NCBI GenBank assembly: GCA_949948895.1 | Contig: CATLHE010000016.1 | Location: 1-33,450, forward strand | Source: an uncultured Christensenella sp. | GTDB lineage: Bacteria; Bacillota; Clostridia; Christensenellales; Pumilibacteraceae | Length of the DNA: 33,450 nucleotides | Reading direction: 5' to 3' | In this document: one piece after another, positions 11,455-33,450 of the stretch | Position numbering within the stretch: the stretch's first letter is position 1 | How the letters are laid out: every line of letters begins with the position of its first letter | Position numbers and translations under genes: made by a program | Notes under the pieces: model-generated | Told to the model about the DNA's origin: nothing | The model's input: the letters and a program-made list of their open reading frames with translations, nothing else | Databases searched by the model: none

Positions 11455-11472
11455 ATAAGAAATAAGATAACC

Positions 11473-13575: not shown

Positions 13576-13613
13576 GGCTAAAATAAACATATACTTTGTC
13601 GGGAGGGCGGGCA

Positions 13614-15050: not shown

Positions 15051-16036
15051 TAGCTGTACTTTGCGGGTTTCTAACGGCGTTTTTGACCGCGCTTTTATTG
15101 CTCCCCGCAAACGTCAGGCTTGTTAAGCGTCTCAAAGCGGGGCAACCGATACTGTCGTACGTAGACAATCACAAGTCCAAGTCGGGCACTCCGACCATGG
15201 GCGGCATTTCCATTGTTCTGTCGCTTTTTACCGCGCTGTTTTACACTGGGCACGACGGCAATGCGGCGTATATCATAGTTATAGTCACGCTCGGTTATGC
15301 GCTTATCGGGTTTATAGACGACTTTATAAAAGTACGGTATAAAAACAATAAAGGGCTTTCGGCGGCGCAAAAACTGATTTTTCAGATAATACTCGCCGTT
15401 ATAGTCTCGGTATATGCGTATTACGACCCCGAGATCGGATCGTCGGTGTTTGTGCCGTTCGCGCCAAAAACCATAGAGCTCGGACGGTTCGCGCCCTTGT
15501 ATTACGTGTTTATATTTTCGGCGTTTACAAATGCAGTGAATCTTACCGACGGGCTGGACGGCTTGGCGGCGTCGGTGACCGCGACCAACGCGCTTTTCGT
15601 GTGCGTGATCATGGGTATAGCCATGTTTGCAGGCGTAGTGTCGGGCGCGGCGGCGTCCGATATAGTGGTGCTTTGCGCCGCGCTAGGCGGCAGTCTTTGC
15701 GCGTTTTTGTGCTTTAACACCCACCCCGCGCGCATATTCATGGGCGATACCGGCTCGATGGCGCTCGGCGGATTTTTGGCGTGCGTTGCCATATTCAGCA
15801 GAATGTCTCTCAGCATGCTCTTGATAGGCATAATGTACGTAGCGTCCACGTTGTCCGTTATCATTCAGGTCATTGTGTTCAAGATCACGGGCAAGAGAGT
15901 GTTTTTAATGGCGCCGCTCCATCATCACTTCGAGCGCAAAGGCGTGTTCGAAGGGAAGATAACTGTGATATACACGCTTGTGACCATAGTGTGCGGTATA
16001 GTGACCGCCGCGCTCATGATAGTGCTTTACGCGTAG
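15047..16036 (+). CDS. mraY: Phospho-N-acetylmuramoyl-pentapeptide transferase MraY
   Basis: This integral membrane enzyme transfers phospho-MurNAc-pentapeptide to undecaprenyl phosphate, forming lipid I. At 329 aa it is of normal length with about ten TM segments. Visible motifs are the SKSGTPTMGG segment near residue 45-54, FIDDFIK, NLTDGLDG at 165-172 and the HHHFE motif from residue 292. The start is TTG at 15047, inside the murE stop region (TTGA overlap), with GGGAG about 10 bases upstream, so it is translationally coupled to murE. An untranslated gap of 77 bp separates it from murD. Confidence 0.96.
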   Translation: MIAVLCGFLTAFLTALLLLPANVRLVKRLKAGQPILSYVDNHKSKSGTPTMGGISIVLSLFTALFYTGHDGNAAYIIVIVTLGYALIGFIDDFIKVRYKNNKGLSAAQKLIFQIILAVIVSVYAYYDPEIGSSVFVPFAPKTIELGRFAPLYYVFIFSAFTNAVNLTDGLDGLAASVTATNALFVCVIMGIAMFAGVVSGAAASDIVVLCAALGGSLCAFLCFNTHPARIFMGDTGSMALGGFLACVAIFSRMSLSMLLIGIMYVASTLSVIIQVIVFKITGKRVFLMAPLHHHFERKGVFEGKITVIYTLVTIVCGIVTAALMIVLYA

Positions 16037-16107
16037 GACATAGCTACATATACTTTGCGATACGTCGCCGCCGTGCAATTCTAAATATGCCGCGCGCTTC
16101 ATACAAT
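16026..16107 (+). promoter_or_regulatory. Possible murD promoters
   Basis: Two candidates are seen. TTTACG (16026-16031) and TATACT (16049-16054) are spaced by 17 bp. Closer to the gene, TACAAT (16102-16107) lies 6 bases before the murD ATG, with only a weak TTCTAA (16079-16084) at 17 bp. The second would yield a leaderless mRNA as inferred for other genes in this window. Both are of modest quality. Confidence 0.4.
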
Positions 16108-16113
16108 TATGTT

Positions 16114-17379
16114 ATGAAGATTTACGACGGCAAGAATTTTTTTATTTACGGCGACGGCACGTCGGGGCGGGCGGCGCTTCGAGCTATCAAAAAACACGGC
16201 GGCAAAGCTAAGATATATTCGGACAAGAACGGTGTTTTTGTAAAGCCCAAGGACGGAGTGTACGACGGTGCGGTCATAAGCCCCGGTATAAGACGCGATC
16301 ACGCCGTTTACGACTATGCCCTAGCAAATAAGATACCCACGACGGGCGAAGTCGAGATAGGTTTTGCCATAGCCGATTGCCCCGTTATAGGCGTGACGGG
16401 CACAAACGGCAAGACGACTGTGACAAGTCTTATCGCGGCTATGCTCGGCGGTACGGCATGCGGCAATATCGGCTATCCCATAACGACGGCGGCGGAGCGA
16501 GAAAAGAAAGTATTGGTATGCGAGCTGTCGAGTTTTCAGCTGTACGATGCGGTCATATACCCCAAAGCGGCGGTTATAACCAATATCGAAGCCGATCACA
16601 TCGATTGGCACGGTTCGTTTGAAGAATATTGCCGCTGTAAGTGCAATATCGCGTCGAATATGGACGGCGACGGCGTTTTGGTATTGGGCGAGGACGTCAA
16701 AGTGGGCGCGCTCAAAACGCTTAAAACGGAAGCGAGGATAATACGTTGCAGTTCGGTCGGCGCGGTTGACGGCGCGTATATAGAAGACGGGTTTTTCAAG
16801 TTTTTCGGCGAGCGCGTTTGCTCGACGGACTATCTCAGGCTGGGCGGCGCGCACAATCTCAAAAACGCGCTTACAGCCGTCGCCGTTGCCAAGAGCATGG
16901 GCGCGGATAACCGCGATATAATAAAAGCGCTGTCTACCGCCAAGCTCGACGCGCACCGCGTGGAATACGTCGGCACGGCGTGCGGAAAAAAGTGGATAGA
17001 CGACAGCAAAGCGACTAATATCGCGGCGTGTCTCGCGGCGGTGGAAACAACGCATGACAGCGTTTGTTTGATAGTAGGCGGACGCAATAAGGGTTTGGAT
17101 TTCGAACCGCTTTTTCGCGAACTTCCCGAGCGCGTGATTGATGTGATAGCTATGGGCGAGTGCGGCGAGGACGTATCGGAGGCGGCGGAGCGCGCAAAGT
17201 TTAGCGGAAGTGTGATAATCGCGGACAGACTTTCTGCGGCGGTGTCGGCGGCTACGAAAAGCGCGGCGCAAACGGTGCTTCTGTCGCCTTGCTGTGCGTC
17301 TTTCGACGAGTTCGGAAACTACGCCGAGCGCGGCGACAGCTTCAAAGCCGAAGTGAATGCGTTGCGGGGGCGGAAATGA
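16114..17379 (+). CDS. murD: UDP-MurNAc-L-alanine:D-glutamate ligase MurD
   Basis: This cytoplasmic Mur ligase adds D-Glu to UDP-MurNAc-L-Ala. With the ATG at 16114 it has 421 aa, slightly short for MurD. It has the N-terminal nucleotide-sugar domain (YGDGTSGRAA near the start), the ATP loop TGTNGKTT from residue 95, the NIEADHIDWH segment and the DDSKATN motif of MurD. The open frame extends upstream into mraY, but that part is out of the mraY frame and unlike MurD. An ATG at 16087 is another possibility. No Shine-Dalgarno sequence precedes 16114. The stop overlaps the ftsW start (ATGA). Confidence 0.95.
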   Translation: MKIYDGKNFFIYGDGTSGRAALRAIKKHGGKAKIYSDKNGVFVKPKDGVYDGAVISPGIRRDHAVYDYALANKIPTTGEVEIGFAIADCPVIGVTGTNGKTTVTSLIAAMLGGTACGNIGYPITTAAEREKKVLVCELSSFQLYDAVIYPKAAVITNIEADHIDWHGSFEEYCRCKCNIASNMDGDGVLVLGEDVKVGALKTLKTEARIIRCSSVGAVDGAYIEDGFFKFFGERVCSTDYLRLGGAHNLKNALTAVAVAKSMGADNRDIIKALSTAKLDAHRVEYVGTACGKKWIDDSKATNIAACLAAVETTHDSVCLIVGGRNKGLDFEPLFRELPERVIDVIAMGECGEDVSEAAERAKFSGSVIIADRLSAAVSAATKSAAQTVLLSPCCASFDEFGNYAERGDSFKAEVNALRGRK

Positions 17380-18626
17380 AAGAAAAACGTTTACGTAAAA
17401 AACGCGATCCGTTCGGTTCGCATATAAACGACCCGCTGGGGCGGTCGGATATAGTGCTTGTGGCAGTTACGCTGGCGCTCGTGGCGTTCGGAGTGCTCAT
17501 GGTATATTCCGCGGGCATGTACTCGGGCGAAAAGATGTACGGCACAAAGTACTATTTTGTGTATAAACAGCTTTTGGGCGCGGGGTTGGGGCTTGCCGCG
17601 ATGTTTTTGTTTTCGCGTATCGACTATCGCGTTCTGTATAAACTCAGATACGTAATACTCGCGGTTTCCGTCGTACTGCTCGCTATCGTGTTTATCCCGT
17701 CGGTCGGGATAGAAAACTACGGAGCGAGACGGTGGATAAACCTGCCGTTTTTTACGATACAGGCGAGCGAAGTCGGTAAGTTCGGGTTTATAGTGTTTGC
17801 CGCGGCGTATCTCGGGACAAGACCCGATAAGGTAACTAGTTTTAAGGGTATCCTGCCGGTAATAGGCGTGGGCGGGACTATGTGCGTGCTCATAATTTTG
17901 GAGCCGAACATGTCGGTGACTATATGTATGGCGGCGCTCATGATAGTCATGCTGTTTTTGAGCGGCGCAAAGATCAAGCATTTGCTAGCCGTAATAGCGC
18001 CTTTGATAGCGGCGGCGGTGGTGCTTATATTGATAGAGCCGTACCGTTTCAAAAGGCTTATGGCGTTTATCGATCCGTGGGACAGTCCGCTTGCGGAAGG
18101 GTATCAGTTGATACAGTCGTATTTCGGATTGGGCGCGGGCGGATTTTTCGGCGTCGGGCTGTTCAATTCGCGGCAAAAGTATTTATTCCTGCCGTTTTCG
18201 GAAAGCGATTTCATATTCAGCGTGATAGGCGAGGAGCTCGGACTTTTCGGCTGTATGATAGTGCTCATCGCGTATATCATAATGATACGGCGAGCGCTGA
18301 AAGTAGCGCAGGGCGCGCCAGACAGGTTCGGCTCGCTGCTGTGCTCGGGCATAGCCGCAATAATCGCGATACAAGTTATGGTAAACGTGGCGGTCGTAAC
18401 GGGAAGCATACCGCCTACCGGTCTTCCGTTGCCGTTTATAAGCAGCGGCAGTTCGGGTCTTATCGTGTTTATGTCGGGTATAGGCGTGGTAAACTCGGTA
18501 AAGCGTCGCAGTCATAAAAGTTCGCCGTTGGCTTTTATTAAACCCGTTGGCAAAGTCAAGCCGCCCCGTGCCGAAAAAACGAATAAGCGCGCGAAAACAA
18601 AAATGCGAAAAGCCGCAACACATTAA
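17376..18626 (+). CDS. ftsW: SEDS peptidoglycan glycosyltransferase FtsW/SpoVE
   Basis: This 416-aa polytopic protein polymerises lipid II into glycan strands together with the class B PBP encoded upstream. About ten TM segments are visible. Motifs of the SEDS family include GARRWI after span 4, the large loop with FIDPWDSPLAEGYQ and QS, and IGEELG near span 8. The PEAHTDFIF-like motif is PFSESDFIF here. The ATG at 17376 overlaps the murD stop by 4 bases, with GGGGGCGG upstream as ribosome site. A basic, Lys/Arg-rich tail of about 40 residues ends the protein. SpoVE and FtsW cannot be separated by eye, and murG does not follow. Confidence 0.94.
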   Translation: MKEKRLRKKRDPFGSHINDPLGRSDIVLVAVTLALVAFGVLMVYSAGMYSGEKMYGTKYYFVYKQLLGAGLGLAAMFLFSRIDYRVLYKLRYVILAVSVVLLAIVFIPSVGIENYGARRWINLPFFTIQASEVGKFGFIVFAAAYLGTRPDKVTSFKGILPVIGVGGTMCVLIILEPNMSVTICMAALMIVMLFLSGAKIKHLLAVIAPLIAAAVVLILIEPYRFKRLMAFIDPWDSPLAEGYQLIQSYFGLGAGGFFGVGLFNSRQKYLFLPFSESDFIFSVIGEELGLFGCMIVLIAYIIMIRRALKVAQGAPDRFGSLLCSGIAAIIAIQVMVNVAVVTGSIPPTGLPLPFISSGSSGLIVFMSGIGVVNSVKRRSHKSSPLAFIKPVGKVKPPRAEKTNKRAKTKMRKAATH

Positions 18627-18666: not shown

Positions 18667-19797
18667 GTGAAATACGTTGCCGCAACATTTTCATATCTGA
18701 AAAAGCATTTTTGGCTGCCGCTCGCGGTCATGATCGTTCCGTCCGTGATAGCGTGCTTTTTGTATTCGCCCTATTGGGAAGTATCGTTCGTTTCGGCGTA
18801 CGATTACTATCCCTACGTACCCATAAAGCAGTCGTTCAGAATAATTTTCGGCGATCCGTGGCTGTATTTATGGCCGGTAATAGTTATCGGTATATTTCAG
18901 GTAGTGGGCGCGGCGCTCATAACGTCGGCCATCGGCACGCATTTACGCACGGGTAAGCTCTCGCTCAAACACCCGTTCAGAATGGTAAACACCGCAATAT
19001 TTCCCACTGCGTTGTGCGTCGCGATAATGTGCGCCGTTTCCATTTTGTGGCGCTTTATATTATTCGGACTGACAACGCTCGTTTGCGTCATAGGAAACGC
19101 GGCGGGACTACCTGCGGGCGCGACGCTTGCCGTCATAGCCGTTATAGCGTGTGTGATGTTCTTTTTTCACGTGCTTATAATAACGCCCATGCTGTACTGG
19201 TCGCCGATAATGGCGTTTTACGGTTACGGGTTTCGCGACGCGGCTGCGGCGTCGTTCAAACTGATATCGGGTAAAAAAGTATTCGGCGGACTGTTCTTTC
19301 CGATGTTGCTGTGCGCCGCGATACAACTTCTTATCGGCTTTTTAAACGTGCACGTTTGGATAACGTGGGTAATGGACGCCGTAATATTCCTCGTTACCAA
19401 CGCTTACGTGCCCGTGTACGTCGTAATATCGTTCTATAAAATAAGCGGGCTCGATCGACGTGACGTGCTCCCGTACGAGCTCTCGCTTCCGTCGCCCGTC
19501 AGACAAACCGCGACGACGGCGGCTAAGGCGAGCGGAGCGACCGAACCTAAAGCCGACGAAAGTGAATCGGAAACACCCAAGAATAAAACCGATAACAAGA
19601 ACAAAGCCGATAAACATTCGGATAAGAAGACTGCGGAAAAAGGCGCGCGCGCAAAAAACGACGGCAAAAAGCAGTCAAACAAGACTGAAAAGTCGGGCAA
19701 AACTTCGGTAAAACCGCGCGAGACAAAACGCGTAGAGCCGAAACCGTCGAAGCAGGAAGCAAAAAGTTCGGCGACGGGAGGCGAAGATGTCGTTTAA
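18667..19797 (+). CDS. Polytopic membrane protein with Lys/Glu-rich C-terminal tail
   Basis: I do not recognise this 376-aa protein as a named family. The first 265 residues contain about six hydrophobic spans, with a short aromatic first loop (SAYDYYPYVP). The last 105 residues are almost only Lys, Glu, Asp, Ser, Thr and Ala and are presumably disordered and cytoplasmic, able to bind nucleic acid or acidic partners. The GTG start at 18667 is chosen because the TATAAT box ends six bases before it; no ribosome site is seen. It overlaps the next gene by 11 bases. The two proteins are alike in size and in their pattern of paired spans, so they may form a complex. Confidence 0.75.
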   Translation: MKYVAATFSYLKKHFWLPLAVMIVPSVIACFLYSPYWEVSFVSAYDYYPYVPIKQSFRIIFGDPWLYLWPVIVIGIFQVVGAALITSAIGTHLRTGKLSLKHPFRMVNTAIFPTALCVAIMCAVSILWRFILFGLTTLVCVIGNAAGLPAGATLAVIAVIACVMFFFHVLIITPMLYWSPIMAFYGYGFRDAAAASFKLISGKKVFGGLFFPMLLCAAIQLLIGFLNVHVWITWVMDAVIFLVTNAYVPVYVVISFYKISGLDRRDVLPYELSLPSPVRQTATTAAKASGATEPKADESESETPKNKTDNKNKADKHSDKKTAEKGARAKNDGKKQSNKTEKSGKTSVKPRETKRVEPKPSKQEAKSSATGGEDVV

Positions 19798-20713
19798 AAA
19801 CGCGCTTAAAAATCTCGTGGCCAATTTCGGTACGGTCTGGGCGCTACTATTGTACATGGTGATATTCGCCGCCGTCATAACGGGTGTAAGTCTGCCGTTT
19901 TTGTTGCCCGTGCTGAGAGAATTCGATAGAGCGGGGGTTTTCCGCGAGCTCGGCGGCGCGTTCTCGTCGATCTTCGGCGAAGGCGGATGGCAGGGTTTTA
20001 CGACGGGCTTGGATTCCGTATACAATTCGGTGGTAAACGTATTCGACAGCAATGATACCGTAGCGACTCTTACCGTATCGTTCGTAATTTTTGTCGTGAT
20101 CATCGGGTTCAGATTCTTTTTGGGACTGCACGAGATCCCGCTCGCGACTGTCATAGACGGAAGAATGTCAAGCAACGCGCGCTACGGTTTGGGCGGTAAG
20201 TTCTTTTCTACGCTGGGCGTGTCGGTGCGTTATTCGTTTGCGAAAATGCTGTATACCGTTATTTTCGACGCGGCGCTCTTTGCGATACTGTACGGACTCA
20301 AAGTCGCTATAGTCTCGAACGTAGCGTTTCTTTTCGCGGGAATATTCGTCGCGGTGCTGTTTCTGTCGTTTCGGTTTTCCGTTTCGGCGTGCTGGGCGCC
20401 CATGGTAGCCTGCGGCGAGGCGGGCGTGGTAAAAGGTTTTGTGCGCTCGGCGCGGCTGTGTTTTAAAAACTTCGGCACTTTTTTCTCGACGTATTTCGTT
20501 TCTTTTATATTGTTGTTTGCGCTGGGACTGTTTGTAACGGTGTTTACTCTCGGCGCGGGACTTGTCATAGTCTTGCCCGTATCGGTAACGTACTTCGCTT
20601 ATCTCAACGCGACCGAGTTCTTCGGCAAGACGGGAAAGAGATACTACGTAGACGGTGCTGTGGTGATAACTCCCGTCAATCTGTCGGAAGACAATATCGC
20701 GACGGAAGACTGA
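19787..20713 (+). CDS. Polytopic membrane protein of unknown function
   Basis: This 308-aa protein has about six TM spans and begins with a short amphipathic, basic segment (MSFKNALKNLV). A long loop after span 1 (residues about 45-95) contains many Gly, Phe and Asp residues. Segments such as ACWAPMVACGEAG before the last spans recall membrane proteins annotated as DUF975-like or as glycerophosphodiesterase membrane domains, but the match is too weak to name. The ATG at 19787 has GGGAGG 7 bases upstream and overlaps the preceding gene by 11 bases, so translation is probably coupled. A strong bidirectional terminator follows. Confidence 0.75.
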   Translation: MSFKNALKNLVANFGTVWALLLYMVIFAAVITGVSLPFLLPVLREFDRAGVFRELGGAFSSIFGEGGWQGFTTGLDSVYNSVVNVFDSNDTVATLTVSFVIFVVIIGFRFFLGLHEIPLATVIDGRMSSNARYGLGGKFFSTLGVSVRYSFAKMLYTVIFDAALFAILYGLKVAIVSNVAFLFAGIFVAVLFLSFRFSVSACWAPMVACGEAGVVKGFVRSARLCFKNFGTFFSTYFVSFILLFALGLFVTVFTLGAGLVIVLPVSVTYFAYLNATEFFGKTGKRYYVDGAVVITPVNLSEDNIATED

Positions 20714-20795: not shown

Positions 20796-21950
20796 TCAAA
20801 TTTTGCGGACGCGTATGACGTTTTCGCGCGCGGATATATCGTTTATTATTTTTTGCGGAAGATCGTCCGCGCAGTCTATTATGGTGTAAGCATAGTCGCC
20901 GCGCGATTGCGATACGAAGTTTTCTATATTGATCCCCGCTTGCGAAACGATATCGGTAATAGAGTTGAGCACATTTTTCACGTTGCGGTGTATGACTGTG
21001 ATACGGCATTCGCCCGCACGCGGAGCGGAGCAGGCGGGGAAGTTGACCGAGTTTTTGATATTGCCGTTTTCTATAAAGTCGCGCAGTTCGTGCGCCGCCA
21101 TTACCGCGCAGTTATCTTCGGCTTCCTCTGTGGACGCGCCGAGATGCGGCATGACGGTGATGCCTTTTACGCCTATGAGCTCGGGCGCGGCAAAGTCCGT
21201 TACGTACGCGCCTATCTTGCCGCACTCTACCGCCGCTTTTACGTCGGCGTTTACGCAAAGCTCGCCGCGGGAAAGATTGATTATTTTGACGCCGTTTTTC
21301 ATCTTGGAAATAGCTTCGGCGTTTATCGTGCCGCGCGTGCCGTCGGTGAGCGGAACGTGTAGCGTGATATAATCGGAGTTCGCGAACAGATCGGCGAGGC
21401 TATCCGTTTTAGTTATGTTGTGATTGAGCTTCCACGCCGAGTCGATGGAAATATACGGGTCGTAGCCGAGAACGTTCATTCCGAGCCTTACAGCATTGTT
21501 TCCGACCTGAACGCCTATCGCGCCGAGCCCGACAACGCCCAAAGTCTTGCCCATGATTTCGCAGCCTGCGAAATTCTTTTTGCCTTTTTCCACCTGCTTG
21601 GCGACGTCGTCGCCCTTGAGCGTTTTAACCCATTCTATACCGTCGACCACTCCGCGCGAAGCCAGAAAAAGCGCCAAAAGACAGAGCTCTTTTACGGCGT
21701 TGGCGTTTGCGCCCGGCGTGTTGAAAACGACAACGCCTTTTTCCGCATACTCCGCGACGGGAATATTGTTGACGCCCGCGCCCGCTCGCGCCACGGCAAT
21801 AACGCTGTCTGGCAAAGCGTAGTCGTGCATAGAAAACGATCTGAGCAGTACTGCTATCGGGTCTTTGGCGTTATCGCATAGCGCATAACCGCCGCCGAGC
21901 GCGCCCTTTGCTAGGTGGGATATCGAATTGAGTGTGAGTATATTTTTCAT
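20796..21950 (-). CDS. serA: D-3-phosphoglycerate dehydrogenase
   Basis: This enzyme oxidises 3-phosphoglycerate to 3-phosphohydroxypyruvate with NAD, the first step of serine synthesis. It has 384 aa: a substrate domain of about 95 residues, a Rossmann domain with GVVGLGAIG near residue 140, the catalytic Arg in NLSRGE, a Glu in APELIG and the catalytic His in MPHLGAST. Residues from about 315 on form an ACT domain (RNVKNVLNSITDIV onward) that should bind serine as feedback inhibitor. This is the short form with a single ACT domain. It lies 34 bases after serC and is probably cotranscribed with it. Confidence 0.95.
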   Translation of the reverse strand: MKNILTLNSISHLAKGALGGGYALCDNAKDPIAVLLRSFSMHDYALPDSVIAVARAGAGVNNIPVAEYAEKGVVVFNTPGANANAVKELCLLALFLASRGVVDGIEWVKTLKGDDVAKQVEKGKKNFAGCEIMGKTLGVVGLGAIGVQVGNNAVRLGMNVLGYDPYISIDSAWKLNHNITKTDSLADLFANSDYITLHVPLTDGTRGTINAEAISKMKNGVKIINLSRGELCVNADVKAAVECGKIGAYVTDFAAPELIGVKGITVMPHLGASTEEAEDNCAVMAAHELRDFIENGNIKNSVNFPACSAPRAGECRITVIHRNVKNVLNSITDIVSQAGINIENFVSQSRGDYAYTIIDCADDLPQKIINDISARENVIRVRKI

Positions 21951-23292: not shown

Positions 23293-23321
23293 TTGACAAT
23301 GCAACATTTATGTATTATAAT
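23293..23321 (+). promoter_or_regulatory. Perfect consensus promoter of the giant-protein operon
   Basis: TTGACA (23293-23298) and TATAAT (23316-23321) are spaced by exactly 17 bp, identical to the sigma-A consensus. Transcription should begin near 23328, giving a leader of about 85 bases before the ATG at 23413. Such a promoter suggests strong, constitutive expression unless repressed. Confidence 0.88.
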
Positions 23322-23412: not shown

Positions 23413-26400
23413 ATGAATACGGTAAAAACCAGACGTAAAATAAAAACGTTGATCGTTTCGATAGCGGCATGTTTGACGCTCGTTTTGAGCGCGGTGTTTT
23501 CTTTCGGAATGTTCGACGGTAAATATTCCGCGGCGGACAGCGACGAGCCGCCTGTAACAAACGAAGTAGGACTGCGGTTCGTGCAAGTAGCGGCAGGTCG
23601 GGATTTTGCTATCGGACTCACGTACGACGGAAAGCTGTACGGATGGAGCTTATACGACAGCAATAACGGCTTGGGCGCGGGTGCGTCGAGCCTTGGGCGG
23701 TATTATACGTCGGAGCCTACCGAGATAAACGTAAAGTTTGTGTTGGGACCCGGAAATAACGGAACCGTTGATTGGTCTAACGAAGATGAAAAAACCGGAT
23801 ATCATGCACCCGATACAAACGGAAGAAAAATAATCCAAATAGCGGCGACGAGCACTACCGCCGCGTTCATAACCGACAACGGATATATATATACTTGGGG
23901 AAAAGACGTGCAAAAAGATTTGCCGTCGCCCGCATATTCCAACGTAGGCAGCGAAGGCTCGAATTATCATTATTTATTGTTGAGGACTCCCGACTCATCC
24001 AAAAGCGAAAGAGACTGGTATAATCCTTATATAATACAGTACGATTATTATAAAAAGATGTCCTCCACGGAATCTCCCGAGTACGCTCTTTCCACTGTGC
24101 TTGCCAAAAGCTCTCAATACTCCGATTTCTCGATAGCTGCAGGCGAAAACAATTACATATTGGTTTATAGATTGGGTAGTGAGTATTACAGCTATGTTTG
24201 GGGTTCCGTAATGTATGTGAACACTCAAACGGAAGGCAACGACGACCGATATAACTTTACTTCCTCCGCAGAATCGACCGAAGGTTTTACGGTAGAAGAC
24301 AACAGCAGTATTTACAGATACATATATCATACGCGGTTCAGAACAGGCGATACCGTGACGGCTGTTGCCGGCGGATACAACGTCGCAATGAACGGCAAAG
24401 GTACCGGCAGTGTAGGCGACAACACAACGTCGCTCATGCTTCGCGGCAGAAACTTTATTACCACCGGCGGACTTACGAAAACAGGACAGGAAACGGTGGG
24501 CGGTAAGACGTATGAAATTTACGAACCTACCGTGACGGTAGCGACGTCGTCTGTTCCAACGGGTACGACCTCCATTGTATATGAGCAGGACGGCACCAAT
24601 TACTTGATCAAAAACGGTATTATAGGCGGTAACGGCGGCGGCGCACCGTCAAACGGTACGATAGCTCAGTCGACGGGCACTTATTACGGTGTTCAGCTTG
24701 CCAAGGCTGGCGGCTCTGCTACCGATAATCTGAATTATTCCGTTTCGCAGCCCGCAAAATCCGGTGTCTATAACGCCGAGGGCGTCGAAATAGACGCCGT
24801 TTCGATCAACGGTCGCAACATTAAGGCGATACGTAACGCCGTATCGCTCGGCAACGACGTAGGTTACGGTATAAACGACGCGGACGGTCAGCTTTACGCA
24901 TGGGGCGATAATAAGCTTGGGCAAAGCGGACGCGGTACGGCCGATCAAAATTACAGCTATCCGACGAAAACGCTCGAAGGCAAATACGTTATTGCCGTTG
25001 CGGCGGGTAAACAGCTGTCGGCAAGCGATAACGGTAGGAAAGCTTTTAACGATAGCGCAACGTTTGACACGTCTGCGGGCGTAGCTTTCTCGGAAAACGT
25101 ATACAACAAAGGTAGCTTTATAACCGGCGCGATCGTAAATGAAAACGACGGTATATCGGACGCCAACGCCGGTTCGCTTTGGGTGTGGAGCGATAAGAAA
25201 AACACGCCCGAGAAGATCGAAATAGGCAATTCGTCCGACGAGTACAATAAGTTTGTCGCAGTCTATTCGGGCTACGGCGCGAATTTGTTTGCCATAACCA
25301 AGCTCGGAAAGATAGTTCGCATTTATTATGACGAAGCCGATTCGACGGGCGAATTCAAGTTCAAGGTATACGACGATTTCCGCGGTACCGACGGACGGCT
25401 TATCGACAATTGGACCGTCGCGGAAAATGGCGACAATATGTTTAAAGTAGCGGGACTCGATTCGACGGCAGATCACAAAACCGAAAAGCTCGCAAGCTTT
25501 ACATTGTTTGTAAATAACGGAATATCGGATAAATCGAGCACTAAGCTCAACGGCGCGTCCAACGACGCTCTCGATCCGCTGTACTACGGTTCCGACCGTG
25601 GTTCGCTCGTTACCGAAAATAAAATAGGCGACGTTTACCGTATACTCGATTATAATAGCGATACGTCTATACGGTTCATGAAAACAGACGATACTCTGGC
25701 GAAGACGACGCTTGAGCCTAAGTTCTATTTTAAAGCGGCGGGGCAGGCGAATTCCGTATTGATGGGAGAAGCGCAGAGAAACTCGTTGCTCGATTATGAT
25801 ATTGTTTACGACGATAATTACGGCGTAGGCATTAAGATCATGCCCAAACAATCGTCCAAGCTCGGTACGGTGTCTGTCGAGTTTTATATCGCTCGTTACG
25901 ACTGCCAAACCAACTTCAGGATCACGAGCAACTCCCGTCCTACGGACAATAAAGCTCAGTACTACGAATATAAACCGTGCCGCGTAGATTTTGTTATAGA
26001 CAATACCGCGGCGTTCCAGACGTTTGACTCGTATCGCAACAACGGGCAGGGCAACGCAAATGTGCCCCTTCTCGATCCCAATAACAAAGACAACAAGGTC
26101 TATTCTGTTGCCGTTCAAAATATTTCTTTGGGCGCGGATGAGTTGGCTAAGCACCTTACGAACAACAATGCCACCAATAAGGCTAAGCTTTTGGACGCGA
26201 TAAAGAAAGCTATGATCGATAAGGACCTCGGCTATCCCGACGCCGCCAAAATAGCGCGAGGCAATCTCGATTACTATCTCGGCGCAGCGGAAGCGAGTCG
26301 CGCATACTCCGGCACGTATCAATGGTTGTTTGAGGATATCGACGCGGACGTTATACAGATACAAGAGCTTTCCGACGAGCGCTTCGAGGGCGCGGTAAGC

Positions 26401-29106
26401 GGAGCCGTAGATAAGAAAGTAAACAAGATAGATATCAAGCTTGATAATCTTGGGTCGCTTAATATATCGGAAGATATCGCGTCCGCGTTCTTTACCGACT
26501 TTAACAATCTTTACGGTATATACAACGTAGGGTTCACCGTTGAAAGCGGCATAGTGACGGCTCTCGAGTTCTCGTACGACGTGGTTACGTTTACCGCTTC
26601 TAACACGACGGGCGCTTTGGTCTACAACTCGGGCAGCGTTTCCGACTATGCTACGACCGGCACCGACGGCAACGCCCGCATGAGTTTCTCCATCAATACG
26701 TATTACGAGTATACTCGGTACAACGCCGATTATCGCACCGACCTGACGGCGACGGACGCCGCAGGCAGAGTTGTAGATACTTGGAGTAATTTTGCCGACG
26801 TATTTTCGCAAGCCTCGGTGCGTCTTAAAGCCGACGACGGCAACGGGCATTCTCTTAAACCCGAGGGCGGCGACGTAGCGTACGGCGACGCGTCCGAACG
26901 TCGCAATAAGATCTATATAGAAGATACCAGGGATATCGCGGTAGGCGAAACGGTCAAATTGGAGCTTAGTCGCTATATCGAGAGTTACGGCGCGTTCGTA
27001 TCGTTCTCGCACAACAACAAGCGCGACGATTACGGCAGCTTTAACAGTCAGTTCCCCGACAAGCTCGGCAGGCCGGGCGAGACTTACGTCAAGCTCAACG
27101 AAAGCACTTTGGAAATAACTCCTTCGCGCGCTTTCGATATCGACATCGAGGTAAGCATACAACGCTTCTACGGCGCCGACAACGCGTACTTTGACGGCGG
27201 CGACGAAAAGATAACGCTTGTATTTACGTTTACGGGTGTAAAGCCTGTCGATCTCCGCGATTCGGGCGCGAAAAAGACTTTCCCTGTTTCAAAAGAAGGT
27301 GTTGTAGATATCTTCGGCAGAACGTCGAACGGCACCGCAGGCGCAGTCAACGAAGCCGCGCTTATATCGGTGGATCAAAGATATATCAGGAACAACAAAA
27401 TCGAGTTGCAAGGACTTAAGAGCAGCAATGCCGAAGTTCTTTCCGTGACGCCTATCGACAATAAGTCGTTCAGAATAACGCCAAAAAACTCGGGCGTGGC
27501 GCACGTTCAGTTTGCCGTATCCGTATACGACAAGTCGGTGCCCATTATCCTCACGTTTAATGTTTCGGGTATCACGCAGGTCACTACGGGTAAAGATAAA
27601 GATCCGCTTGTCGTCGCGCTCGACGGCACGAGATACGTGTATATAAGCGAGCTTAAAACCGCGTTGCATACCGCGGTCGGCAGCTTTAACGACGATATCG
27701 ACGACTACACCGTTTTATACACGGACGTAAACGACAGCGGAATGCTCAACGCCATTTATTTCACCGAGTGGACGGAAAGCACCAATGCCGAGAGCGAGCC
27801 GATCGTGGGTTATCCTTCGTACGTCAAGAGCGTTACGTTCCAAGATTATACCAGCGGAAACGACAATAAATCGTACATTCGCATAACCATGAACGACGAA
27901 GCCAGCGATATGTCCAAGGTGTACAAAATGCACGTCAGATTTATCGACGGCACCGCCAACTATACCTCGTATCAAGATGCTAAGGACAAGGGCGGAGCTA
28001 TTATCGAAACGACGTTTATCGTCAAGTCAACTAAACAGATAGCTCAAGGTCCGGGCGGCGGAATGCTCACCATCGACGCAGACGTCGACAAGCCCAAAAA
28101 ACAAAACGAAAACAATATCAACAGCGATTGGTACATGTCGGGCTCGAATATCGAAGCCAAAATATACGTGCCGCTCGAGTATTTGTTTGCTTGCGCGGGA
28201 TTGCAACCCGACAATTACAGCGTGTTCCTCGTTACAGCGTCGGATAACGCTACAAACTATATCAACTATACGTTTGACAGTAAGCGCGTGATAATAACTC
28301 CGCTTTACGACACGCCCGAAAATACGGTCATTGCGCTCAACGTTTCGACCCGGTCGTCGCGTAGTTCGGAATCCAATCAGGTCATCGCGTTCAGCATAAC
28401 CGTAAAGGGTATTTCGACCACGCTGTCCAAGCAAGAATATACGACTATTTGGCTCGTTGCGTTCTTCGCTTCGTTCGGTTTGCTGTTCATCATATTTATC
28501 ATTCGTTTGATAGTATACTGGCGTCGCCGTGCAAAGCAGCGCGCTCTTATCAAGCGCAACCAAGAGCTTATCAAAATGCGCGACCGTATACACAACCGCG
28601 CGGGCGTTGCTACGCGCGAGCAGGTCGTTAAAACCAAGCTCAAGATGGAAGATCCCAAGTACGCAAAAATGTTCGGCGAGATGAAGCGCGACAGAAACGG
28701 CGATCCCGGCGTTACGCTTGAAAACTCCGATTTCGGCGTAGGCGCGGACGACGATAAAAAATCCAAAAAGAAGAAAAAGAAGGGCGGCAAAAAATCGATG
28801 GCGGAGCTCAAAGCCGAGCTTGCCGCAAAGAAAGCCGCTTTCGCCCAAGCCCAACAGGGCGGTGTCGGCGGTCAGCCTTTCGGCGGCGCCGCACCCATGG
28901 ACAGTCCGGTATTCGAAGCGCAGTCTTACGGCGCGGAACCCATGAACGGCGGTTATCCCAACGGCGGCGACGGTTTCGGCGGTCAGCCTTTCGGGGATGC
29001 GCCCATGAACGGCGGGTTCGGCTCTCCCGTGGACGGCTATTCGCAGTCCGACCTTGACGGCAACGCGATAATATTCGACGCAACCGACGACGGGGTACAG
29101 GGTTAA
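23413..29106 (+). CDS. Giant RCC1-repeat surface protein with C-terminal TM and cytoplasmic tail
   Basis: This 1897-aa protein has a signal sequence (about 12-32, basic N-terminus, likely cleavage near 41). RCC1-like propeller motifs follow, in the pattern VAAG...G...DG.LY.WG, at about 52-78, 138-164, 472-500 and 520-535, with a weaker one near 612-640. Residues about 700-1650 are beta-rich, Asn/Asp/Thr-rich segments that may be Ig-like domains; none is named with confidence. A TM helix lies at about 1679-1703, followed by WRRR. The 195-residue tail has a Lys cluster (about 1779-1794) and Gly-rich repeats with GGQPFG twice. Topology is therefore N-out, C-in. There is no LPxTG sorting signal. 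AGGG nine bases before the ATG is a weak ribosome site. The gene ends 11 bases before its partner. The function is unknown. Confidence 0.85.
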   Translation: MNTVKTRRKIKTLIVSIAACLTLVLSAVFSFGMFDGKYSAADSDEPPVTNEVGLRFVQVAAGRDFAIGLTYDGKLYGWSLYDSNNGLGAGASSLGRYYTSEPTEINVKFVLGPGNNGTVDWSNEDEKTGYHAPDTNGRKIIQIAATSTTAAFITDNGYIYTWGKDVQKDLPSPAYSNVGSEGSNYHYLLLRTPDSSKSERDWYNPYIIQYDYYKKMSSTESPEYALSTVLAKSSQYSDFSIAAGENNYILVYRLGSEYYSYVWGSVMYVNTQTEGNDDRYNFTSSAESTEGFTVEDNSSIYRYIYHTRFRTGDTVTAVAGGYNVAMNGKGTGSVGDNTTSLMLRGRNFITTGGLTKTGQETVGGKTYEIYEPTVTVATSSVPTGTTSIVYEQDGTNYLIKNGIIGGNGGGAPSNGTIAQSTGTYYGVQLAKAGGSATDNLNYSVSQPAKSGVYNAEGVEIDAVSINGRNIKAIRNAVSLGNDVGYGINDADGQLYAWGDNKLGQSGRGTADQNYSYPTKTLEGKYVIAVAAGKQLSASDNGRKAFNDSATFDTSAGVAFSENVYNKGSFITGAIVNENDGISDANAGSLWVWSDKKNTPEKIEIGNSSDEYNKFVAVYSGYGANLFAITKLGKIVRIYYDEADSTGEFKFKVYDDFRGTDGRLIDNWTVAENGDNMFKVAGLDSTADHKTEKLASFTLFVNNGISDKSSTKLNGASNDALDPLYYGSDRGSLVTENKIGDVYRILDYNSDTSIRFMKTDDTLAKTTLEPKFYFKAAGQANSVLMGEAQRNSLLDYDIVYDDNYGVGIKIMPKQSSKLGTVSVEFYIARYDCQTNFRITSNSRPTDNKAQYYEYKPCRVDFVIDNTAAFQTFDSYRNNGQGNANVPLLDPNNKDNKVYSVAVQNISLGADELAKHLTNNNATNKAKLLDAIKKAMIDKDLGYPDAAKIARGNLDYYLGAAEASRAYSGTYQWLFEDIDADVIQIQELSDERFEGAVSGAVDKKVNKIDIKLDNLGSLNISEDIASAFFTDFNNLYGIYNVGFTVESGIVTALEFSYDVVTFTASNTTGALVYNSGSVSDYATTGTDGNARMSFSINTYYEYTRYNADYRTDLTATDAAGRVVDTWSNFADVFSQASVRLKADDGNGHSLKPEGGDVAYGDASERRNKIYIEDTRDIAVGETVKLELSRYIESYGAFVSFSHNNKRDDYGSFNSQFPDKLGRPGETYVKLNESTLEITPSRAFDIDIEVSIQRFYGADNAYFDGGDEKITLVFTFTGVKPVDLRDSGAKKTFPVSKEGVVDIFGRTSNGTAGAVNEAALISVDQRYIRNNKIELQGLKSSNAEVLSVTPIDNKSFRITPKNSGVAHVQFAVSVYDKSVPIILTFNVSGITQVTTGKDKDPLVVALDGTRYVYISELKTALHTAVGSFNDDIDDYTVLYTDVNDSGMLNAIYFTEWTESTNAESEPIVGYPSYVKSVTFQDYTSGNDNKSYIRITMNDEASDMSKVYKMHVRFIDGTANYTSYQDAKDKGGAIIETTFIVKSTKQIAQGPGGGMLTIDADVDKPKKQNENNINSDWYMSGSNIEAKIYVPLEYLFACAGLQPDNYSVFLVTASDNATNYINYTFDSKRVIITPLYDTPENTVIALNVSTRSSRSSESNQVIAFSITVKGISTTLSKQEYTTIWLVAFFASFGLLFIIFIIRLIVYWRRRAKQRALIKRNQELIKMRDRIHNRAGVATREQVVKTKLKMEDPKYAKMFGEMKRDRNGDPGVTLENSDFGVGADDDKKSKKKKKKGGKKSMAELKAELAAKKAAFAQAQQGGVGGQPFGGAAPMDSPVFEAQSYGAEPMNGGYPNGGDGFGGQPFGDAPMNGGFGSPVDGYSQSDLDGNAIIFDATDDGVQG

Positions 29107-29117
29107 GAGGTGGCATG

Positions 29118-32100
29118 ATGCAAAAAACAACGTTTAAACATAAGATATTGCCCATTATAGCTCTTATCGCGATCATCGCGGTGCTCGTCTTTGCCTTCGG
29201 TATGCCCAAGGCATTCGGTGCGCGTGCGGAAGGCAACGGGTCGGGTTCTCACGGTACGTCCGATTATGATATCGAGCTTATTCTCGACGTAAACGGCAGA
29301 GACGCTATGGTCGTATCGTCTTTGCGCGACGACGCAGTAGAAAAGATCGACACCAACAATGCGCAGCATATAAAAAGGCGTCAGTTAAGCCGCGCGGCGG
29401 TCGTTGCGGCGTACAACGCCAAGCATACCACAGATCAGATCAGCGCCAGTTCCGTATCGTTTAAGTTAGACGCGGAGATGATAGGCGGGGACGAGGTCGA
29501 GATATCGTATGACCGTTCCAACGCTAACACCATGTACGTAAACGCGGTAAAAGCTACCAACGACGTGCGCTTTTCGGTAACGCTTTCCGACGGACACGTG
29601 ATCTACTTTAAAGCCAAGGTAGAAAACACGTTCGCCCAGCGTGCTGCGGTAGAAAACGGCGGTTGGGATATTACCACGTCGATAAAGAACGTCAAGATCG
29701 GCGGCAAAGTCAATAACGATGTAGAAGACAGCTCGTTCAAATCCATAGAACTCGAAAACTTCACAACATGGGAGTTCAATCTCGGCGATCTGCTTTGCGG
29801 ACGCGCATTGTTTTGCAAAGCAAACGCCAACGACGACTATACGATGCCCATTTTTATGTCGGCAGGTAGTTCTAAATATTGGACGATAAGTTCTGCCGAT
29901 AATTTTATCGTAAAAGATATTTCGTTCGGCGGTATGCCAAATGCATTTACCGAAGTCTCGTTCCTCAATCCTACGTCGTCGTCCGCTTTTTCGGCATCGG
30001 TCAAGGCAAAGCTCAGTCTTACGACAAAAGAAGTTCTCGATTATAACGGCAACAACGGTATGTCGATGGACGACTTTTGGGGCAAGACGCATAATATAGA
30101 GATCGGTATAGCTACTGTAGAAGCGCCCGAGGCGAGAGAGGTTATTTGCATACCCGTAAACTTTATCGCGGCAAATCCCCAAACTATTCCGCTTGATATA
30201 AACAGACTCAATCTCAATATTACGTCCAATTACACTTACGACTACGCAAATAACATTTTCTATGATAATGAGCACCCCGATACCCCGCTCAATACAATAG
30301 ACAGGGAAGCGGGCTACAGCGCGGTCATTATCCGCCCGACCGATTTGGTCGATTACTGCCATGCCGAAGCGGGCAATATCGATAAAATGAGGTTCAGTTC
30401 AGATGGTACCGATATGGGCTCGATGGACGACGATTACATTGTGTCCGAATATGAGTACATAGAGGGCACGACCATTCCCACGGCGTATAAGGTGACAGCG
30501 CAAAACGACGGTCAGTATTCTATCAACTTCCGCATTTCTTATAAGACCGCAAGTTCCGAAAACCTTAAGCCTATAGACGTTCTCACGTCCATAAACGGTT
30601 ACGGCAACTTTAAAGTCACGTTCGGCACGCTCGAAGGCAAGCATCCCATAGAGTACAATATTCTCGACAGCTATCTATTCGACAAGCTCAGAGAAGCGAA
30701 TTATCAAATGACGCACGTCGAGTCCAACAACAAGGACGTGCTCGAAGCGACGCTTTCCAATAATATACTCACGCTCAAGCCCAACGTGGATAAGATAGAC
30801 GGTCAAGCTACCGCGTCGATAACGATGACGTTTACCAACTCTTCGGGTCGCACCGTCAAGATCGTATCCAATACATTCGGTATAGACGTTAAGGCGGGAA
30901 GTTTCTGGGCGAGGTTCGACGACTGGCAAGGCTGGTTGATAATAGCCGGTTGCATTGTAGGCGGCTTGCTTTTGATACTGCTTGTCGTATGGCTCGTTAT
31001 CCGTTCCATTTCCAAGCACAAACAGGAAGAAAATGCCACCGCCGCGCCGGTATCGTCTTACATAGTTAAGCTCAATTCCACTATAGCGGCAACGCAGGCA
31101 CAACAACGCCTTGTGGCGACGCAAGCGCTGTCTCAAGCCAATTCGCAAATGCTTTTGGGCGCAGGTCCTACGGGCACGCAAGCCCCGCCCGCCGATACTT
31201 TGCAGCTTGCCACCGGCATGCCCAGCGTACCTCAGGCTACGGACAGCACACCCAGCGCGCCCGCGCCGGCAATGAGCACGCCTCGCGAGACCGAGGAAAA
31301 CTACGACGAGCTCATCGCAAAATACATTACCGACGAAGAATTGCTCGAGCGTATATTCACCGAGAAGTACGAGCCGAAAGGCATGGTGCGCCGCACGTTC
31401 TTCAAGTCGAAAGACTTGCAGTCGCGCGAACTCGAAAAAGAGAAAAAGCGCATAATCGAGCGTTACAAGACGCCCATGCCCATGGACGAGGCTATCATGA
31501 GCGAAGCGGAGATCGCCAAAGCGGAAGAATCAGGCGACGCGCCCGCCATGTCCGAACCGAGAGAAGAAACGCCCGTATTCGTCATAGATCTCGGATTCGA
31601 TCCCGAAGAACCTTTGTGCGTCGAGCAGAATGTCACGGACGAGTTCTCGGACGAAAAGATCGATCTCGACGTTTCGCCGGAAGAATCGGCGTATGCGGAA
31701 ATATCGCGCCGCGACGACTTCCTTCGTCGCGAACTCGAAGAGCTCAAGCGCCGTATCGACAAGGTGCAGAAAGAGCTTGATCGCAATTCGTCGCTCGAAG
31801 CCGAGCTACGCGAGAAGATCGCCAAAGCGGAAGCCGACGACGACAAGTACAAAAAGGATATCGAAGAGCTCGAATTCAAGCTCGCGTCTGCCAAGCAGAA
31901 AGAAAAAGACAAGATTATGCGCGATATCTCCACTACGGAGACCAAGAAAGAGCGCAACGTCAACGAGCTTGAAAGACTGCGCGCCGAACTCGAAGTATTG
32001 CTCGGCGGCGGCGCTAAGCTCAACGACGTTATGTCGTCGCTCGTCGCTACGCAAGAGCAAAAGAACAGCGAACAGGCGAGCCTTGCCGACGATCTCGATA

Positions 32101-33450
32101 AGGCTAAGGCGGAGCTCGACGCTTACAAACAACGTTTGGAGCTCGTAAGACTTCGTCAAGAACTGGAGGGCAAGATCGAAGGCTTGACGCCTATGCTCGT
32201 GTCCGTCAACTCGCTCGATCACGAGATCCGCGAGCTTGCCGCAACGGCGGAAAAATACGAGAAGGAGCGCGATCTTCTCAAAGCCGATATTGCGTCGGCA
32301 AAATCTCAGATACTCGGCGCAAACGACTTCGAGCTTATCAACGAGCTCAACAGCCGTATATCCGATTCGAATGCGCGACTTTCCGAGATCGAGAAAGAGC
32401 AGACCAAAGCGACAAAGCGCAAGTCCGACCTCAATATCGAGTTCACTTCGCAGCGCCGCAAGGCTAACGAATACGTCGAAAAGAACGAAGTCCCGCTCGA
32501 AGAGATCATCAAAGCCGAAGATACCGTTATCGGCGATTTGGCAATGGAAAACCTCCGTCACGAGCGCGAGTACGAGCGCGAGGAAGCGGAAAGAGCCGTT
32601 GCAAGAGCGCAGGCGGCATTGGACGACGTTACGGCGTCGGCTTCCGACGTCACGATGGTCGCCATGGAGATAGCGTCCGAACTGCAAGACCTCGAAACCG
32701 AGCTTGCTACAGCGCAGTCCGAGCTTGACGCCGTCAACGCTCAGATGGAGACCGCGACCGACGACGAAAAACTCATGCTCATGGTCGATCAGAGCGATAA
32801 GTCAGACAAGGTCGAAGAACTCAGCGAGCGCATCAAGCAGATCAATATCGACGGTACCAAGCGCAAGATGGAAGTTCAAGCCGAGTACGATCAAAGAGTC
32901 GAGGAAGCGCGTCACAATCTTGACGAAACGAGCGAAGAGTTTAAGCTCGCTTCCGCCAAGTACGATACGCTTGCCAACACTAATCCTCTCGACCTTATTG
33001 TATCGGGAAGCGGTATAATAAGCCAAGATCAAAAGAAGATCGAAGCGGAAAACTACAAGAAACAGCTCGAAAGATCCAAGAACGAGATCGAGCAGGCAAG
33101 GCTTGCCGCGCAAAACGCCCAAGCGGAAGCGGAACAGGCGCGCTTGGAAGCGCTCCGCGCATCCGACGAAGCAAAGGCGGAAGCCGAGCGCGTTGCTCAA
33201 GAAGCAATAGAAAGAGCCGAGCAGGCAAGACTGGAAGCGGAAGAAAAAGCGCGCATTGAGGCAGAGAACGCAGAAAAGGCTCGTCTCGAAGCCGAGGAAG
33301 CGGCTGAAAAGGCTCGTCGCGAGGCGGAAGAAGCGGCTGAACAAGCCCGACTCGAAGCCGAGCAAGCCAAGAAAGAAGCCGAAGATGCGGCTGAGCAGGC
33401 TCGCCGTCAGGCAGAAGAGAACCTGCTTGCCGAAGCCGAAGAAGCCAAAC
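29118..33450 (+). CDS. Giant bitopic protein with long cytoplasmic coiled coil (partial, runs off right edge)
   Basis: The frame is open to the end of the window, giving at least 1444 codons. A signal sequence (about 8-28) is followed by an ectodomain of about 570 residues, rich in Asn, Thr and Val, with no domain I can name. One TM helix (about 605-629) precedes a basic stop-transfer segment (IRSISKHK). The cytoplasmic part starts with a Pro/Ala/Thr-rich linker (about 640-720), then a small charged region (FTEKYEPKGMVRR near 750). From about residue 855 to the window end it is a nearly continuous coiled coil, SMC- or TolA-like in composition, but no ATPase motif is seen so far. The ATG at 29118 is preferred over 29115 because GAGG at 29107-29110 then has 7-base spacing. 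The gene is coupled to the RCC1 gene. Confidence 0.85.
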   Translation, partial: MQKTTFKHKILPIIALIAIIAVLVFAFGMPKAFGARAEGNGSGSHGTSDYDIELILDVNGRDAMVVSSLRDDAVEKIDTNNAQHIKRRQLSRAAVVAAYNAKHTTDQISASSVSFKLDAEMIGGDEVEISYDRSNANTMYVNAVKATNDVRFSVTLSDGHVIYFKAKVENTFAQRAAVENGGWDITTSIKNVKIGGKVNNDVEDSSFKSIELENFTTWEFNLGDLLCGRALFCKANANDDYTMPIFMSAGSSKYWTISSADNFIVKDISFGGMPNAFTEVSFLNPTSSSAFSASVKAKLSLTTKEVLDYNGNNGMSMDDFWGKTHNIEIGIATVEAPEAREVICIPVNFIAANPQTIPLDINRLNLNITSNYTYDYANNIFYDNEHPDTPLNTIDREAGYSAVIIRPTDLVDYCHAEAGNIDKMRFSSDGTDMGSMDDDYIVSEYEYIEGTTIPTAYKVTAQNDGQYSINFRISYKTASSENLKPIDVLTSINGYGNFKVTFGTLEGKHPIEYNILDSYLFDKLREANYQMTHVESNNKDVLEATLSNNILTLKPNVDKIDGQATASITMTFTNSSGRTVKIVSNTFGIDVKAGSFWARFDDWQGWLIIAGCIVGGLLLILLVVWLVIRSISKHKQEENATAAPVSSYIVKLNSTIAATQAQQRLVATQALSQANSQMLLGAGPTGTQAPPADTLQLATGMPSVPQATDSTPSAPAPAMSTPRETEENYDELIAKYITDEELLERIFTEKYEPKGMVRRTFFKSKDLQSRELEKEKKRIIERYKTPMPMDEAIMSEAEIAKAEESGDAPAMSEPREETPVFVIDLGFDPEEPLCVEQNVTDEFSDEKIDLDVSPEESAYAEISRRDDFLRRELEELKRRIDKVQKELDRNSSLEAELREKIAKAEADDDKYKKDIEELEFKLASAKQKEKDKIMRDISTTETKKERNVNELERLRAELEVLLGGGAKLNDVMSSLVATQEQKNSEQASLADDLDKAKAELDAYKQRLELVRLRQELEGKIEGLTPMLVSVNSLDHEIRELAATAEKYEKERDLLKADIASAKSQILGANDFELINELNSRISDSNARLSEIEKEQTKATKRKSDLNIEFTSQRRKANEYVEKNEVPLEEIIKAEDTVIGDLAMENLRHEREYEREEAERAVARAQAALDDVTASASDVTMVAMEIASELQDLETELATAQSELDAVNAQMETATDDEKLMLMVDQSDKSDKVEELSERIKQINIDGTKRKMEVQAEYDQRVEEARHNLDETSEEFKLASAKYDTLANTNPLDLIVSGSGIISQDQKKIEAENYKKQLERSKNEIEQARLAAQNAQAEAEQARLEALRASDEAKAEAERVAQEAIERAEQARLEAEEKARIEAENAEKARLEAEEAAEKARREAEEAAEQARLEAEQAKKEAEDAAEQARRQAEENLLAEAEEAK
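33273..33425 (+). repeat. 33-bp tandem repeats encoding an 11-residue coiled-coil unit
   Basis: Inside the coiled-coil gene, units starting at 33273, 33306 and 33339 are each 33 bases long and encode variants of EKARLEAEEAA. After a 21-base partial unit (33372-33392) another begins at 33393. Related EAR/EAE-rich sequence extends back to about 33110. An 11-residue (hendecad) period gives a nearly straight, slightly right-handed coiled coil. Codon differences between units show that they are not a very recent duplication. Confidence 0.8.

What the first reader, a model, noticed from the sequence alone, without database searches (positions are those of the whole stretch)
23413..33450. Two-gene operon of giant single-span proteins with large outer parts and cytoplasmic tails: candidate undescribed trans-envelope system
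Seen: two adjacent genes (11-bp gap, one consensus promoter) both encode signal peptide, very large ectodomain, one TM helix followed by basic residues, and a cytoplasmic tail. One ectodomain has RCC1-like repeats; the other protein carries more than 590 residues of inner coiled coil. Known: Gram-positive surface proteins are usually held by LPxTG/sortase, S-layer or choline-binding domains and have almost no cytoplasmic part. Inference: the pair may form a complex that links a surface structure or receptor to an internal scaffold. Further genes of the operon may lie to the right.
Basis: partly seen in the sequence, partly recalled or inferred. Interest (0 to 1): 0.75.

Follow-up and report, generated by a model that had tools for sequence, protein, structure and literature searches.

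The report
Giant trans-envelope operon in cell-division cluster
A family of gut bacteria carries, inside its cell-division and cell-wall gene cluster, an undescribed set of giant proteins that seems to tie very long surface proteins to a giant internal scaffold; nobody has yet shown what it does.

Summary
P1 (23413-29106, 1,897 aa) and P2 (29115 onward, cut by the contig end) are adjacent genes, each with signal peptide, large ectodomain, one membrane helix and a cytoplasmic part. On another contig of the genome the operon goes on with a third giant, P3 (2,335 aa, cytoplasmic, acidic, coil-rich). P1-P2-P3 is conserved in Pumilibacteraceae and lies in the dcw cluster (FtsW ... P1-P2-P3-MurA-FtsQ). 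Of 74 family genomes 33 have P1; all 33 have P2, and 32 also have giant surface proteins (mostly 3,500-4,250 aa) related to P1 and P2 at their membrane ends. The five genomes found with P2 but no full P1 have P2 without ectodomain and no such giants. P3 shrinks to 112-129 aa at the same locus elsewhere. Cytoplasmic parts evolve slowest. No sortase was found in the 74. Best reading: a lineage-specific trans-envelope complex whose internal core belongs to the wall/division machinery and organises giant surface proteins. Conservation, co-occurrence and locus are shown; binding, position in the cell and function are inferred. No family in the libraries searched fits P2, P3 or the giants.

The parts
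23293..23321 (+). consensus promoter TTGACA-17-TATAAT before the operon
   Evidence: sequence
23413..29106 (+). P1: signal peptide, RCC1-like head, long stalk, one membrane helix, basic cytoplasmic tail
23566..25362 (+). P1 RCC1-like (beta-propeller) head, about residues 52-650
   Evidence: Pfam WD40_RLD/RCC1; end of the region approximate
25513..28392 (+). P1 stalk, residues 701-1660, fast evolving (median identity 32%)
   Evidence: domain type inferred, not modelled
28438..28509 (+). P1 membrane helix (about 1676-1699)
28510..29103 (+). P1 cytoplasmic tail (RNQELIKMRDR ... EDPKYAKMF ... terminal IIFDA)
   Evidence: alignment A3; TM plus tail median identity 67.5%
29115..33450 (+). P2, incomplete here (contig end); its last part is on contig C10 (L061:1-708)
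29220..30914 (+). P2 ectodomain, residues 36-600, chain of beta-rich domains
   Evidence: AlphaFold model mean pLDDT 77.6; fold comparison
30609..30896 (+). P2 membrane-proximal Ig/cadherin-like domain shared with the giants
30921..31010 (+). P2 membrane helix
31149..31166 (+). P2 cytoplasmic MLLGAG motif; a like motif is in tails of the giants
31296..31499 (+). P2 most conserved cytoplasmic module (ENYDELIAKYITDEELLERIF...MPMDEAIM)
   Evidence: median identity 85.5% over residues 726-800
31692..33449 (+). P2 cytoplasmic coil-like region, continues on contig C10
21985..23067 (-). SerC (context; left neighbour of the operon)
   Evidence: position in relatives
20796..21950 (-). SerA-like dehydrogenase (context)
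18667..20713 (+). two multi-span membrane proteins without Pfam family (TM376 18667-19797, TM308 19787-20713) between FtsW and the operon
9786..18626 (+). dcw cluster: MraW, a one-helix protein (FtsL-like by position only), PBP, Mur ligase, MraY, Mur ligase, FtsW

Best explanation
P1-P2-P3 is a lineage-specific trans-envelope complex of Pumilibacteraceae. P3 is a giant acidic coil-rich scaffold in the cytoplasm; P2 is a membrane-anchored coil protein that joins it; P1 carries an RCC1 propeller on a long stalk through the wall. With them work one to three giant single-span surface proteins (mostly 3,500-4,250 aa), whose membrane ends are related to those of P1 and P2 and whose cytoplasmic tails bear a motif like one in P2. 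The core (P3, then P3 plus a short P2) belongs to the dcw cluster and probably acts with the wall-synthesis or division machinery; ectodomains and giants come and go together with it, so that surface proteins are gathered at a scaffold-defined place on the cell. Shown: conservation, gene order, co-occurrence, relatedness of the membrane ends, intracellular conservation. Inferred: binding between the proteins, position in the cell, adhesive role.
For: Operon: P1 and P2 side by side in 30 of the 33 P1 genomes in loci seen; in G015 and G085 by coordinates; in G009 they lie at contig ends. P3 directly after P2 on one contig in 28 of 33; the other 5 stop at contig edges. Co-occurrence in 74 genomes: P1 33, giants 33, both 32. 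The 4 other strong P2 genomes (G024, G031, G034, G092) and G097 have P2 without ectodomain and no giants. Sister genomes G028 (full set) and G068 (short one-helix protein, 745-aa P3, no P1, P2 or giant hit), 96% support, differ in all parts at once. dcw locus. Membrane ends related: P2/giants 98.7%, P1/giants 96.1%. Tail motif: MLLGAG or a close variant in 20 of 23 P2 rows plus the window's, M-L/I-G in 22 of 24 giant tails (counted by eye). Median identity: P2 ectodomain 26% against 85.5% for its cytoplasmic module; P1 stalk 32% against 67.5% for helix and tail. No sortase: 0 of 74.
Against: No experiment and no interaction datum. The Fisher test (p 1e-18) ignores shared ancestry. G086 has a giant but no P1, P2 or P3 hit (its assembly also lacks SerC, as do 5 of the other 20 family genomes searched there, so the locus may be missing); G008 has the operon but only a weak, broken giant hit. 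MurA was not seen within two genes right of P3 in 4 of 11 full-operon genomes where that side is visible (G005, G018, G023, G028; one gene visible in G018 and G028) nor in 3 of 14 without full P1 (G024, G031, G093). G027 has no P3 between SerC and MurA, so the system is not needed for division throughout the family. A place in a gene cluster can be inherited without function. The hhalign alignments include the hydrophobic helix, which inflates scores; the tail motif is short and was picked after looking. Coils give spurious profile hits.
Confidence: 0.55

Rival explanations
1. Division/elongation regulator first: P2/P3 are an EzrA-like membrane-tethered coil regulator of septum or side-wall synthesis, the P1/P2 ectodomains sense or grip peptidoglycan, and the giants are independent adhesins that merely occur in the same clade.
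For: dcw position in full, short and mini forms; short P2 is an N-terminal helix plus long cytoplasmic coil; the cytoplasmic parts are the conserved ones.
Against: Giants occur in 32 of 33 genomes with the ectodomains and in 1 of 41 without; related membrane ends and a like tail motif; no Pfam EzrA match in 22 members of A1 at E up to 0.1.
Confidence: 0.2
2. Polar attachment or gliding organelle: the complex works like the terminal organelle of mycoplasmas, with cytoplasmic scaffold, membrane links and long adhesins at one pole.
For: Same kinds of parts (comparison recalled): coil-rich and acidic cytoplasmic giants, single-span giant surface proteins, beta-rich domains with weak likeness to adhesin and S-layer domains.
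Against: No match to a named mycoplasma cytadherence family at the thresholds used (MG_279/MG_280-type at E 0.025 in one short P3 is far below its cut-off); no motor candidate was sought or identified; polarity cannot be seen from sequence.
Confidence: 0.12
3. Plain surface adhesins with unusual anchoring: in a lineage without sortase, large surface proteins are held by one helix, and long tails only stabilise them; the dcw location is inherited and means nothing.
For: 0 of 74 genomes match sortase; G027 does without P3 at the locus; in some full operons MurA was not the neighbour.
Against: Tails and coils are far more conserved than ectodomains; P3 exists as a 112-1,134-aa cytoplasmic protein at the same locus without P1/P2, which a plain anchor does not explain; joint difference between G028 and G068.
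Confidence: 0.13

Closest known systems
EzrA (Bacilli division regulator; description recalled, paper listings)
   Same: N-terminal membrane helix followed by a long cytoplasmic coil, as in the short P2; a link to division genes here by locus
   Different: No Pfam match; full P2 has a large ectodomain and lies with P1, P3 and giants; FtsZ binding unknown
Mycoplasma terminal (attachment) organelle (recalled)
   Same: Giant surface adhesins plus acidic and coil-rich cytoplasmic scaffold proteins
   Different: No sequence relation found; lineage with wall-synthesis genes; operon inside dcw
Cadherin/Ig-repeat adhesins and S-layer proteins (FrhA, MpAFP, SbsC, cadherins)
   Different: Middling Z, mostly 8-14% identity, a common fold; a cytoplasmic coil of this kind is not known to me in them (recalled)
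RCC1-repeat proteins
   Same: P1 head matches RCC1 repeats by Pfam
   Different: Joined to a stalk, helix and tail; no RCC1 protein of this build among the 20 papers listed (listing only)

Membership tests
RCC1-like repeat proteins | RCC1 repeats forming a propeller | tested here: met
   RCC1_2 and RCC1 above cut-off; 13 of 13 scanned match RCC1_2 and WD40_RLD, 8 of 13 RCC1; WD40_RLD is below its cut-off in P1; the propeller itself was not modelled
LPxTG/sortase-anchored surface proteins | sortase in the genome | tested here: not met
   PF04203: 0 of 74 family genomes (0 of 43 high-quality); rings in 3 of 14 control genomes
S-layer (SLH-anchored) proteins | SLH domains in these proteins | tested here: not met
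   No SLH in Pfam scans of P1, P2 and one giant; genomes not searched
EzrA | EzrA sequence family | tested here: not met
   No EzrA among the Pfam families matched by 22 A1 members at E up to 0.1 nor in one whole short P2
EzrA | N-terminal helix plus long cytoplasmic coil | tested here: met
   Short P2 forms in G034, G031, G092 and one-helix coil-like proteins in G030, G090; full P2 differs
EzrA | binds FtsZ at the septum | not testable with these tools
   needs imaging and binding assays
Mycoplasma terminal organelle proteins | membership of cytadherence families (e.g. EAGR-box proteins; names recalled) | tested here: not met
   No such family above cut-off in Pfam/NCBIfam scans of P1, P2, P3, short forms and one giant
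Mycoplasma terminal organelle proteins | localisation at one cell pole | not testable with these tools
   needs microscopy
Ig/cadherin-type adhesins | chains of Ig/cadherin-like domains | tested here: inconclusive

The most novel reading that the evidence does not exclude
A new kind of bacterial organelle-like system: a dcw-encoded cytoplasmic scaffold (P3, P2) that couples cell growth or division to the placement of giant single-span surface proteins, found in one bacterial family in every grade from a ~120-aa coil-like dcw protein to a ~5,900-aa three-gene complex with about three giant clients per genome in the window's genus, as a Gram-positive counterpart of scaffold-and-adhesin junctions.
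Probability: 0.35. Interest if true: 0.9.

Novelty: categorically new. Interest (0 to 1): 0.75.

Why it matters
If right, Gram-positive bacteria can hold and arrange surface proteins through a dedicated internal scaffold instead of sortase, S-layer or wall-binding domains, and that scaffold belongs to the division and wall cluster. The graded series at a single locus (mini P3, P3 alone, short P2 plus P3, ectodomain-less P2 with a P1 stub, full system) records how a large trans-envelope machine was assembled or dismantled. Three named isolates carry it (Anaerocaecibacter muris, Pumilibacter muris, Pumilibacter intestinalis), so it is testable.

Tried and rejected

Rows left out: A1 had the window plus 21 of 26 available P2 segments, A3 the window plus 16 of 22, A5 L061 plus 19 of 23, A7 28 of 29, A10 18 of 20 new giant ends plus 4, A11 the window plus 12 of 20; short segments were dropped automatically; G007, whose P2 is split in two frames, entered as separate pieces and is partly absent from the medians.
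Full report
What is there. Above cut-off Pfam recognises only the RCC1 repeats of P1; P2 has no Pfam family at E up to 1 and only NCBIfam hits far below cut-off, mostly coil proteins. The window is the whole of contig C16 (33,450 bases). Contig C10 of the same genome begins with 42 residues identical to the end of the P2 fragment and continues with the end of P2 and then P3, 2,335 aa without membrane helix. The overlap lies in a repetitive stretch, so the join in this genome rests also on the same order P1-P2-P3 in relatives, seen on single contigs for P2-P3 in 28 of 33 P1 genomes; the other 5 (G000, G003, G009, G085, G089) stop at contig ends.

Who has it. A scan of named genomes finds relatives in Anaerocaecibacter muris, Pumilibacter muris and Pumilibacter intestinalis and in MAGs, i.e. 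Pumilibacteraceae; the isolates come from mouse gut or faeces (passage). In 74 family genomes the P2 profile hits 40, of which 37 strongly; G097 came to light later. The P1 tail profile hits 33, all of them among the 37; the P3 N-terminal profile hits 53, several of them weakly. In 396 genomes drawn from the order, strong P2 hits occur only in the family.

Gene position. In the window the order is MraW, a one-helix protein, PBP, Mur ligase, MraY, Mur ligase, FtsW, two unknown multi-span proteins (TM376, TM308), then SerA and SerC on the other strand, then P1-P2. After P3 on C10 come a MurA-type enzyme and an FtsQ-type protein. Among the 33 full operons, the genes left of P1 are visible in 25: 22 have SerC next to P1 or TM308 close by (in G017 with two genes between), 3 have neither (G035, G069, G089). 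The genes right of P3 are visible in 11: 7 have MurA within two genes (G000, G003, G019, G069, G083, G089, G094), 4 do not show it (G005, G023, and G018 and G028, where one gene is visible). Of 14 genomes with a P3 or P3-like protein but no full P1 where the right side is visible, 11 have MurA within four genes (G034, G070, G081, G030, G090, G029, G068, G092, G065, G064, G062) and 3 do not show it (G024, one gene visible; G031, two; G093). In 7 genomes of 7 other families neither MurA nor FtsQ lies in the 14-16 kb around SerC (an eighth, G059, could not be judged).

A graded series at one locus. Three g18 genomes have only a 112-129-aa P3-like protein there, matching the C-terminal module of long P3 (YESYNNIILDEI); G093 has a 133-aa one. 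Of 14 g8 genomes 11 have a P3 hit and none a strong P2 hit; the two loci read have P3 alone (1,016 and 1,134 aa). G030, G090 and G029 have a one-helix protein of 354-638 aa plus P3 of 636-752 aa; that these one-helix proteins are true P2 relatives was not shown by profile. G034 and G092 have short P2 (672 and 708 aa, helix at the N-terminus, no ectodomain) plus P3. G024 and G097 have long P2 without ectodomain; G097 also has a 114-aa P1-like stub with helix and tail start (P1-tail profile E 3e-6). Then come the full systems. G027 has nothing between SerC and MurA. In another family (f19) three genomes carry a P3-like protein next to MurA or one small frame away, MurA on the other strand, one of them also beside SerC, so P3 seems older than the family. 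Gain or loss is not settled: the SerC+SerA tree has weak deep nodes, but it makes G028 (full) and G068 (short protein, 745-aa P3, no giants) sisters with 96% support, so the parts changed together at least there.

The giants. Full genomes also hold proteins, mostly of 3,500-4,250 aa, with a C-terminal helix and tail; a signal peptide was seen in the one read whole. Their C-terminal profile gives E below 1e-40 in 33 of 74 genomes: 32 of the 33 P1 genomes plus G086; G008 has only a weak, broken hit. By my count, 16 of the 20 genomes of the window's genus have three such hits (G012, with 7% contamination, seven; G003 and G009 two; G008 none), and genomes of other genera one or two. Their last Ig-like domain plus helix is related to those of P2 (hhalign 98.7%, E 4e-16) and of P1 (96.1%, E 3.5e-9), with the warning that the helix contributes. 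Giant tails are alike across genera (EEIEALLVSEMELEEQMLKL, YQSYGYLPPT, then M-L/I-G and an acidic end); M-L/I-G is in 22 of 24 giant tails read, and MLLGAG or a close variant in 20 of 23 P2 rows plus the window's P2 (G014 has MLLSAG; none in G035 and G024) (counted by eye from the output). No sortase was found in any of the 74.

Mechanism. The picture that fits best: P3 assembles a cytoplasmic scaffold; P2 fixes it to the membrane; P2 and P1 reach through the wall; giants dock by their tails. Because the core sits in the dcw cluster in most loci seen, in short and long forms alike, it probably works with wall synthesis or division, which would place the surface proteins at a growth zone, septum or pole. 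Binding, place and purpose are inference. A wall-spanning stalk with a propeller head outside would suit the size of P1 (about 4 nm per Ig-type domain, recalled), but the stalk was not modelled.

Verdict. P2, P3 and the one giant scanned fit no family in the libraries searched, and six paper searches showed nothing on it. I rate it categorically new as a system, with a mechanism that is plausible but untested.

Noticed in passing
window 18667-20713 (+): Two multi-span membrane proteins (TM376, TM308; no Pfam family) sit right after FtsW, where MurG is often found in other bacteria (recalled); relatives lie at the same place in many loci of the family.
   Followed up: partly
L053:14063-14683 and L114:7309-7848: In G035 and G094 a 206-aa and a 179-aa frame matching the acidic P3 N-terminus precede the long P3.
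   Followed up: no
L133:6324-11651 (-): In another family (f31, G103) a 1,775-aa protein with an acidic GYD-repeat N-terminus weakly matches P3 (E 7e-11, probably by composition) and lies between 1,172-aa and 1,842-aa ORFs: possibly an analogous giant cluster, with no dcw gene recognised nearby.
   Followed up: partly
G020:C1:540807-542135: Pumilibacter muris has a second P3-like C-terminal match (ORF 621 aa) on another contig than the operon, near that contig's end.
   Followed up: no
L053:70-1488 (+): In G035 a 472-aa protein with a short RCC1-type match to P1 and a lipoprotein-like start lies just upstream of P1.
   Followed up: no
L048:6246-11349 (-): In G007 P2 is split into two overlapping ORFs (1,123 and 614 aa); assembly error or real break not decided.
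   Followed up: no
window 24649-27162 (-): An 837-aa open frame runs antisense inside P1; probably a by-product of codon use.
   Followed up: no
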